This document shows positions 39,701 to 43,266 of a stretch of DNA of 64,000 nt, piece by piece. The position numbers were made by a program, and so were the translations under genes. The notes under the pieces were generated by a model that was not told the DNA's origin, made no database searches, and was given only the letters and a program-made list of their open reading frames with translations. This DNA comes from Caprella mutica (taxonomy: Eukaryota; Arthropoda; Malacostraca; Amphipoda; Caprellidae). The DNA lies in assembly GCA_947561585.1 (NCBI GenBank), contig CANNZV010001827.1, positions 124,001 through 188,000 of the forward strand. The letters are read 5' to 3'. How positions within the stretch are numbered: position 1 is the first letter of the stretch; each line of letters opens with the position of its first letter.

Positions 39701-42700
39701 CTTTTCTAGAGATATTTAAATACAAGAACTTTGATTAATTTAAAAATTAAATTTAAAAAACATAATTCAATAACATCAGATATTTTTGTATCAGGAAAAA
39801 TTAATTAAAAAGTCAAGTTATCATTGTTATATCTAAACAGTGTTATTTTTACACTTTAATCTTATGTCTAGAACTGAGCAATGACTGATGTATGCAAATT
39901 GTAAATAGACTATCTCTTCTTTCTTTGTATATAAATTCACATTTCTTGCATTATACTTCCAATGATATTTTTCTGGTCATCCATAGTGTAAGGAATATGA
40001 ACATGGAATACCCCTGCAGTGGCAATGGAATGATATTAAAATAACTCAATATGCCGAGACTACAGCAGAGAATCTGTGCCTTGAAATCTGTCTGTTCTGT
40101 TTCAATAGTATCTTTTCAATGTAATTATGATGGGTTTTTGGAAATACTCTAAACCTTACCGCTATCTTTGTGTGTTAGAATTAACCATTCGTGAGTTTAT
40201 GAAAAATATTCGGTTTCGGAAATATTCTCTCCTAAATGTTTTACCTCAAAAATACTAATACTTTAAATTCTGATGAAGCATGAACTATAAATATTATTAA
40301 TAAATTATATAATTATTGTCAATTTATTCTAAAAACACAGAAATTCTTGAAAAAAAAGTTAGCAGTTACATATAACTCAATATTATCTAATTTATTATAA
40401 TTATTTGAATTCAATTCTAAATCTTCACTAACTATTAGCATAGCAGTATCGCATGATATCATAGGTTAGTCAACTTTGCATGTCCAACGGTCTTCCTAAT
40501 TGTACAATGTTATTCTAAGCAAATTATCCACACATTGCATTCAATATATTTATGATCAAACTAAATAAAATCAATTAAGCCAAAATTTAAATTATTTTGG
40601 CTCGATTTGCAGCTTATATTAGCTAATTTGGTGATTCAATATCAAGTTCTCTATGCATATAACTCATGTCTAAAAATATATTTTTGTCATACTAACCAGA
40701 TGCTAGACAATTCTAATGTCTATTTTTATGTCAACCACTGTACTGTATGGTGGTTTGAAATGACTTCACTTTGGAAGACATACCTACATAATTCGATAAT
40801 TCTGACTATTTATCAATTATCAACTTACATTGGGCCCCAGGAGCTCTATCCTGATGCTGTCTGTGGTGAATGGAAGAGAATGGGGTGGCTGTACTTAGGC
40901 CCCAAACTATTGTAATTTGGATTATGAATTGTCTTTTTTTCATTTTTAACGTTACTTATTTGCAGTTTCAGAGGATAGCGCTATGGTTATGCTCTTCTAG
41001 GTTAGGTAGACAAGTAGGCTTCATTCACTATCACCCCTTCATTTTCCTTTTCAATCTGTGAGTGTGGTTACCGGTGCTTGTGTCTCTTTCCATCACATTC
41101 CTTGATAAGTGACTGTATTCACTGAGTAGATTTTCTACATACATGAGCATTTTCACCGACGGTGGTAGGGGCTTTATCCATGGAACCACTTTTAATTTTC
41201 ACTGCTTCTTCCATTCCCTTGTACTTAATTTACTTTTGATGTCAGCGATATATAGTCAGCGATATGGCTGAAGCAGACGTTAAACATCTAATAATATTAA
41301 AAAATCACTTACATTGGTCATTGACTCATTGTATAAATGAATAAAACACTGACAGACTTTTTTGGACTTTATGACTGAAATTCTTGCAGACGGACCATTA
41401 CCATCGGTGATGCAAAAAGTACCCGTGCCTGTGATTACAAATGCCGATTGCCAAAATATGTACCGATCTGCCGGCTATATTGAACACATTCCTAATATCT
41501 TCCTCTGTGCTGGCTATCAAACTGGCAAGAGAGATTCTTGTGAGGTAAGAAATATATATTCTCATGTGTGAAGTCTAGTCAAAATCACGATGGCTATGAT
41601 GCATCCTGCAAAACAAAGTAGGTTTTTAGTTAGTGCACCAACTCCCGTTCTACAATCACAAGGTATGTAGCTAGTTAGCATCAACTTTGTTACTAGACTA
41701 ACCTGCTCGTGTAGCTAGTTAGCACCAGCTTGGTTACTCGACTTACTTGCTCGTGTAGCTAGTAAGCATCAGCTTGGTTACTCGACTAACCTGCTCGTGT
41801 AGCTAGTAAGCATCAGCTTGGTTACTAGACTAACCTGCTCGTGTAGCTAGTAAGCATCAGCATGGTTACTAGACTTACCTGCTCGTGTAGCTAGTAAGCA
41901 TCAGCTTGGTTACTCGACTAACCTGCTCGTGTAGCTAGTAAGCATCAGCATGGTTACTCGACTAACCTGCTCGTGTAGCTAGTAAGCATCAGCTTGGTTA
42001 CTAGACTAACCTGCTCGTGTAGCTAGTAAGCATCAGCATGGTTACTCGAATAACCTGCTCGTGTAGCTAGTAAGCATCAGCTTGGTTACTAGACTAACCT
42101 GCTCGTGTAGCTAGTTAGCATCAGCTTGGTTACTAGACTAACCTACTCATGTAGCTAGTTAGCATCAGCTCGATTACTAGACTGACTTGCTCATATTGAC
42201 GAAATTTGTATCCAAGTAAAAATAATAGTATGACAGTTGGACGAGACTTTTCTTTACTGATTTATATTTGACCCAAATTGAAATAATCGGGTAATTTAAT
42301 ATCATCAATAGTATACTAATTGAATATTTGGAAAATTCGGTACCTAACCTTTGGTGGTTGAGAATTAAGTTTAATACACTATATGGTAGCATATACTCAT
42401 ATTTTCGAACATTAAGAACGTAACAAAGGTGATGTCATGTAATTATGTTTTTATCTTCTAGTTCTATAAGATATTGAAAATCAGTTTATAAGTACTGTTA
42501 AGATAAGTGTAAGAATATCACACGAAATGTGTTTAAGATAAGTAATTTCGAATAGCTGAATGAGGTTTTTTCTTAATTTGAACACACAGGGATTATATTT
42601 GTTCCTTCTTAAACTATTTTTTTCTGTCGACATCAAGAATAGACTTTAATACTTGACTTGCGGAATGGATCTTACGATTATTTGACACCGAATGCATGAC

Positions 42701-43266: not shown

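What the first reader, a model, noticed from the sequence alone, without database searches (positions are those of the whole stretch)
41390..42929. Mutually exclusive exon pair that rewires the S1 pocket of a serine protease
Two exons, both 155 nt with the same phases and no gaps in alignment (25 of 52 residues identical), each fit between exons 6 and 8. Including both puts the second out of frame with a stop within 15 codons, and skipping both shifts exon 8. So only either/or splicing gives a working enzyme. The swapped segment carries S1-pocket Asp189 in both forms, but position 190 is Ser in one and Ala in the other, and position 172 is Tyr or Phe. The Ser190/Ala190 difference is an established determinant of Lys tolerance versus Arg preference in trypsin-like proteases. 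One gene could therefore make two secreted proteases differing in cleavage preference while sharing activation, stalk and catalytic triad.
Basis: partly seen in the sequence, partly recalled or inferred. Interest (0 to 1): 0.9.

Follow-up and report, generated by a model that had tools for sequence, protein, structure and literature searches.

The report
Protease gene with swappable pocket exon
A gene most like those of amphipod crustaceans, coding for a predicted protein-cutting enzyme, carries two versions of the exon that encodes part of the cutting pocket; each messenger RNA is predicted to take one or the other, which would let one gene make two enzymes with likely different targets.

Summary
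Two 155-nt exons (A 41390-41544, B 42775-42929) have the same phases and GT-AG borders and align without gaps over 52 residues, 25 identical. Either alone gives a 1398-residue protein; both, or neither, gives an early stop. B does not look like a decaying copy: silent sites are saturated, the frame is open, and 9 of 10 family-invariant positions are kept. Of 466 AG|155 nt|GT stretches in the window only B resembles A. The gene belongs to the arthropod filzig/stubble/Notopleural group; its nearest named relatives by identity are amphipod. A is the conserved form. B carries Ala190, found in 0 of 109 gap-free relatives, and a rewritten 170 loop. Not shown: any transcript, any B exon in another species (not found; weak evidence), any change in activity. 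The loop rewrite is larger than the S1-pocket change, so targets or zymogen control may shift more than Lys/Arg choice. Exon B's origin is unresolved.

The parts
33664..33763 (+). exon 1: start codon and hydrophobic signal-like N-terminus
   Evidence: joined reading frame, GT donor; signal judged by eye only
33859..33988 (+). exon 2: start of the N-terminal cysteine-rich motif (CMFAWDC...)
   Evidence: same motif in P0085, P0093 and P0115; no Pfam family for the first 131 residues
34134..37339 (+). exon 3: end of the cysteine-rich motif and the long acidic stalk, partly coded by 21-bp repeats
38109..38286 (+). exon 4: CGQPVYPSKR|IVGG activation site and His57
38516..38668 (+). exon 5: Asp102 stretch
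39058..39173 (+). exon 6, common upstream partner of A and B
41390..41544 (+). exon 7A (conserved form): part of the 140s loop, 170 loop, Tyr172, Cys168 and Cys182, Asp189-Ser190-Cys191-Glu192
41666..42192 (+). 44-bp minisatellite, 12 copies, in the intron between A and B
42775..42929 (+). exon 7B (divergent form): same segment with Phe172, rewritten 170 loop, Asp189-Ala190-Cys191-Glu192
43108..43266 (+). exon 8, common downstream partner: Gly193-Asp-Ser195 to the stop codon

Best explanation
Exons 7A and 7B are two homologous, gap-free versions of one 52-residue piece of a trypsin-type catalytic domain, and the gene most likely uses one or the other in each transcript, which would give two proteases that share the signal-like start, stalk, activation site and catalytic triad but differ in the S1 pocket floor (Ser190 or Ala190) and the 170 loop. 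Shown: homology, matching length and phase, open frames, and frameshift if both or neither is used. Inferred: that both are spliced in, that frame loss (perhaps with nonsense-mediated decay) rather than a dedicated RNA structure enforces the choice, and that the two enzymes differ in substrate preference or in how readily they become active. The commitment on mechanism is a tissue- or stage-dependent splice switch that keeps activation and placement constant and changes the target-facing side of the enzyme, more through the 170 loop and its surroundings than through a clean Lys/Arg switch.
For: Identical lengths, phases and in-frame products. Third codon positions are identical at 14 of 52 against 33 of 51 and 33 of 52 at positions 1 and 2; dN 0.52 (NG86) with dS undefined. 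Neutral simulation from exon A (point substitutions only) gave an open frame with at least 25 identities in 0 of 5000 runs at each of 1.0, 1.5 and 2.0 substitutions per site, a share of 0.0006 at 0.6 and 0.13 at 0.3; the observed third-position identity (14 of 51) lies below the mean at 2.0 (16 of 51). B keeps 9 of 10 columns invariant in 109 relatives; the chance of losing at most one, with 27 of 52 residues changed at random, is 0.004. B's donor scores with the gene's good ones (1 of 290 intronic GTs is as high; weights recalled). No other protease exon lies in the window, and the search of the 903-Mb assembly with exon B gave one identical place among 17 matches. The Filzig-like gene of the same genome (L014) has its equivalent exon as exactly 155 nt in the same phase, once between its neighbours, so the unit is probably old and a copy of it fits without frame damage.
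Against: No transcript data. No B-type exon in any relative returned: the search on exon B alone scored 3 candidates and returned one unrelated protein of unnamed source, bacterial-looking; the search on exons 6-8 listed 120 of 2247 proteins, and of 123 compared, 111 are not nearer B and the 12 nearer B are distant proteases. B's acceptor tract is weak (8 of 17 pyrimidines, background mean 8.8), although exon 8's is 6 of 17. B loses a glycine kept in 109 of 109 relatives and departs at other positions kept in 93-99%, so B could be a weaker or inactive enzyme. Ala190 is not unique among trypsin-type proteases: plasma kallikrein has it and so do some of the distant rows. No clear pairing elements of a splicing switch were found.
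Confidence: 0.66

Rival explanations
1. B is a real, used exon, but its main effect is on activity state or partners, not P1 choice: the swapped piece holds the 170 loop and, by recall, parts of two of the four trypsinogen activation-domain segments, so B may be a zymogen-like, cofactor-dependent or dominant-negative form.
For: Exon 7 spans about residues 147-192. B's changes at strongly conserved sites include exon positions 29, 32 and 34 in the 170 loop and 38 close behind it. In factor VIIa the 170 loop governs cofactor allostery and the low-activity state (PMC8904457, abstract and introduction). In the model of the uncleaved A-type ortholog P0123, residue blocks 141-150 and 191-200, both overlapping this exon, have pLDDT 72 and 62, while 20 of 25 blocks have 88 or more.
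Against: The triad, Asp189 and all three cysteines of the exon are kept in B, and no plainly inactivating change was seen.
Confidence: 0.25
2. B is an old duplicate kept as a poison or cassette element: including it, together with A, mainly lowers the amount of enzyme through frameshifted transcripts.
For: A plus B shifts the frame, with a stop 14 codons into B and about 110 nt before the B-8 junction.
Against: Such a role does not need 51 codons conserved at amino-acid level with saturated silent sites.
Confidence: 0.06
3. B is a remnant that is no longer spliced.
For: No B-type relative or transcript was found; weak acceptor tract.
Against: Neutral drift to this silent divergence does not keep the frame and 25 identities (0 of 5000 at each of 1.0, 1.5 and 2.0 per site); splice borders are intact. 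Very recent loss of use is not excluded.
Confidence: 0.08
4. B was acquired from a paralog rather than by tandem duplication of exon 7A (a rival on origin only, compatible with the best explanation).
For: B's best match is P0198 (29 of 52; A of the window 25), and the 114-row tree puts it with P0198 and two Penaeus proteins at 97/74, bootstrap not settled; the Filzig-like gene has the same 155-nt exon.
Against: AU tests do not separate the origins: A+B p 0.40 and 0.16, B with the P0198 group 0.39, B with the Filzig-like exon 0.38, B with the Stubble-like exon 0.32. In the own genome A is the best hit to B by bits (48.9; next 40.8).
Confidence: 0.3

Closest known systems
Mutually exclusive tandem exons as defined for WebScipio (Pillmann et al. 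2011, PMC3228551; abstract and passages read)
   Same: Neighbouring internal exons of like length, compatible splice sites, same reading frame and sequence similarity
   Different: Transcript evidence that each mRNA has exactly one is missing here; [quoted passage not shown] start of abstract in the listing, two passages)
   Same: One gene gives two serine proteases that differ only in the catalytic part
   Different: There the whole serine protease domain and the preceding 15 residues differ; here a 52-residue piece inside one domain
Arthropod filzig / stubble / Notopleural proteases (eLife 2023, PMC10597583, passages read)
   Same: Trypsin-type serine proteases of the same group; the Hyalella relative of the window gene is named filzig isoform X1 and shares the N-terminal cysteine motif, stalk and trypsin domain
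   Different: No second exon 7 is mentioned in the passages I saw; the close relatives returned are A-type

Membership tests
Trypsin-type (S1A) serine protease | Trypsin domain with His57, Asp102, Ser195 and Asp189 | tested here: met
   Pfam Trypsin E 3.2e-63 (A) and 1.9e-64 (B); triad in exons 4, 5 and 8, Asp189 in both A and B
Filzig/stubble/Notopleural group | Closest relatives and shared architecture | tested here: met
   82-85% identity of the B-form domain to P0085, P0093 and P0115; same N-terminal motif; tree without exon 7 puts the window gene with them, support 92-93, not starred
Filzig sensu Drosophila | One-to-one ortholog of fly Filzig | tested here: inconclusive
   The same genome has another gene (L014) that fits Filzig better as I recall it; fly proteins P0173 and P0190 match the window gene best (with pasted and partly incomplete L013/L014 domains); fly Filzig itself was not in hand
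Mutually exclusive exon pair | Similar length | tested here: met
   155 and 155 nt
Mutually exclusive exon pair | Compatible splice sites and same frame | tested here: met
   AG/GT, same phase, each alone in frame
Mutually exclusive exon pair | Sequence similarity | tested here: met
   25 of 52, no gap
Mutually exclusive exon pair | Every transcript holds exactly one of the two | not testable with these tools
   No RNA data
Tandem gene duplicate mistaken for alternative exon | Further protease exons beside B | tested here: not met
   tblastn of both forms over the window finds only this gene's exons at E below 0.5; the 6-kb flanks L009 and L010 were fetched but not searched
MASP1/3-type swap | Whole catalytic domain alternative | tested here: not met
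   Only exon 7 is doubled in the window

The most novel reading that the evidence does not exclude
An epithelial matriptase-like protease of crustaceans retargets itself by splicing: one 155-nt exon cassette swaps the S1 floor and the 170 loop inside an otherwise constant catalytic domain, so that one gene makes two proteases with different substrates at the same place under the same activation.
Probability: 0.35. Interest if true: 0.78.

Novelty: new variant of a known kind. Interest (0 to 1): 0.56.

Why it matters
If both forms are made, this would be a natural swap of a specificity segment inside a trypsin fold, set by splicing and not by gene duplication. It would give a matched enzyme pair for testing what residue 190 and the 170 loop do, and a splice-level control point in a family whose fly members act in tracheal matrix proteolysis (PMC10597583, passages).

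Tried and rejected
Tandem gene copy: rejected, no other protease exons in the window. Pseudo-exon: disfavoured by neutral simulation. Chance match: rejected. Competing RNA structures: the inverted-repeat search gave 46 pairs, of which the 25 longest were shown, 71-88% complementary and mostly AT-rich; none convinced me. One of them (I15) covers exon A's donor, 41538-41556 with 40233-40251, and was not followed up. Origin by tree: unresolved. Rfam and tRNA scans of the window: nothing. Literature: ten searches; judged by titles and starts of abstracts, the papers listed include none on an alternative exon 7 in this family (one search listed 25 of 244). From only PMC12758981 was opened, and the passages seen did not concern this. 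PMC6950308 was opened for residue 190 and gave nothing on Lys/Arg choice (passages). dS by LWL85 and YN00 failed. Script 42 ended with an error when saving, after its counts were printed.

Full report
What is there. The gene runs 33664-43266 on the + strand: exons 33664-33763, 33859-33988, 34134-37339, 38109-38286, 38516-38668 and 39058-39173, then A 41390-41544 or B 42775-42929, then 43108-43266. Either form gives 1398 residues: a signal-like start (by eye), a cysteine-rich motif, an acidic repetitive stalk and a trypsin domain. Both exons together stop after 14 codons of B, and neither stops one residue into exon 8. A and B share 25 of 52 residues without a gap. The exon borders are my reading of the sequence; no transcript was available.

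Is B more than chance or decay? Of 466 AG|155 nt|GT stretches on both strands of the window, 70 are open in phase; B scores 141 against A, and the best other stretch, A itself apart, scores -13. Codon positions 1, 2 and 3 are identical at 33 of 51, 33 of 52 and 14 of 52. dN is 0.52 by NG86 with dS undefined; LWL85 and YN00 failed. Copies of A evolved neutrally kept an open frame with at least 25 identities in 0 of 5000 runs at each of 1.0, 1.5 and 2.0 substitutions per site, and in a share of 0.0006 at 0.6 and 0.13 at 0.3, where third positions were still far more alike (means 30 and 38 of 51) than observed (14 of 51). So B has been read as protein for a long time. This does not show that it is used today.

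What gene is it? By identity the nearest listed proteins are amphipod: Hyalella azteca (83%, named serine protease filzig isoform X1) and Trinorchestia longiramus (82%); one from an unnamed source has 85%. The list shows 120 of 4186 and is ranked by score, which favours multi-domain proteins, so other relatives may be unlisted. That the window itself is amphipod is inferred from this. A tree without exon 7 places the window gene with these proteins at 92-93 support, not starred. Fly proteins P0173 and P0190 score 1002 and 1019 against the window gene, 542 and 546 against the related gene L014 and 478 and 486 against L013 (the L013 domain lacked its last exon). L014 looks like Filzig as I recall it and L013 like Stubble, so 'filzig' is a database name for the window gene. 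I suspect Notopleural as the fly ortholog, from recall. L014 has its equivalent exon as exactly 155 nt in the same phase, once between its neighbours; L013 has a different intron position there. The 155-nt unit is therefore probably older than this gene.

What differs? Over 109 gap-free relatives (of 123 considered), residue 190 is Ser 101, Thr 7, Pro 1 and Ala 0; A has Ser and B has Ala. Residue 172 is Tyr 88 and Phe 21. B keeps 9 of 10 invariant columns and loses the glycine at exon position 29; it also departs at positions 5, 32, 34 and 38, kept in 93-99%, all but the first in or next to the 170 loop. 12 of 123 relatives score nearer B than A; they are distant proteases, often multi-domain, and some carry Ala190, as does plasma kallikrein. 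A model of the A-type ortholog P0123 (mean pLDDT 87.7) is closest in fold to enteropeptidase, plasma kallikrein and matriptase.

What the difference would do. Thrombin, FXa and FXIa are Ala190 and FVIIa and FIXa are Ser190, with different S1 water binding (PMC10510402, passage). In trypsin complexes Ser190 contacts both Arg and Lys side chains (PMC6342301, table passage). So a difference is likely, but its direction is open. The 170 loop controls cofactor response and activity state in FVIIa (PMC8904457, abstract and introduction), so B may differ there instead or as well.

How the choice is made. Frame alone penalises both wrong outcomes. The A-B intron is 1230 nt, so crowding of splice sites is an unlikely cause. 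The inverted-repeat search gave no convincing docking pair among the 25 of 46 shown. B's acceptor tract is weak but not the weakest in the gene. The intron holds a 44-bp minisatellite with 8 GTAAG and 8 CTAAC motifs in 527 nt, against 3 and 2 in the 2216 nt of intron 6 and 2 and 1 in the other 703 nt of its own intron; whether these act as decoys is unknown.

Limits. Protein clusters at 90% identity can hide B isoforms behind A-form representatives, so not finding B is weak evidence. Splice-site weights were recalled. Trees of 52 columns cannot place B.

Noticed in passing
41666-42192: 44-bp minisatellite of 12 copies between A and B; 8 copies each of GTAAGC and ACTAAC, resembling donor and branch-point signals.
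   Followed up: partly
35531-36875: Acidic stalk coded by 65 copies of a 21-bp repeat (TEGSQTE-like), so stalk length may vary between alleles.
   Followed up: no
1791-3493, 16050-17664, 19532-21212, 23085-24840, 48022-49246: Many long minisatellite arrays in this window (45 rows, some overlapping).
   Followed up: no
55021-59156: Gag-pol-like long open frames of a retroelement on the + strand (by eye).
   Followed up: no
50958-52018: Transposase-like frames on the - strand, mariner/Tc1-like by eye.
   Followed up: no
about 3572-4179: Run of unknown bases (read as X).
   Followed up: no
L014 1499-1653: Filzig-like gene elsewhere in the same genome with the equivalent 155-nt exon in one copy.
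   Followed up: partly
40233-40251 and 41538-41556: Weak inverted repeat (19 nt, 79% complementary) that would cover exon A's donor site.
   Followed up: no
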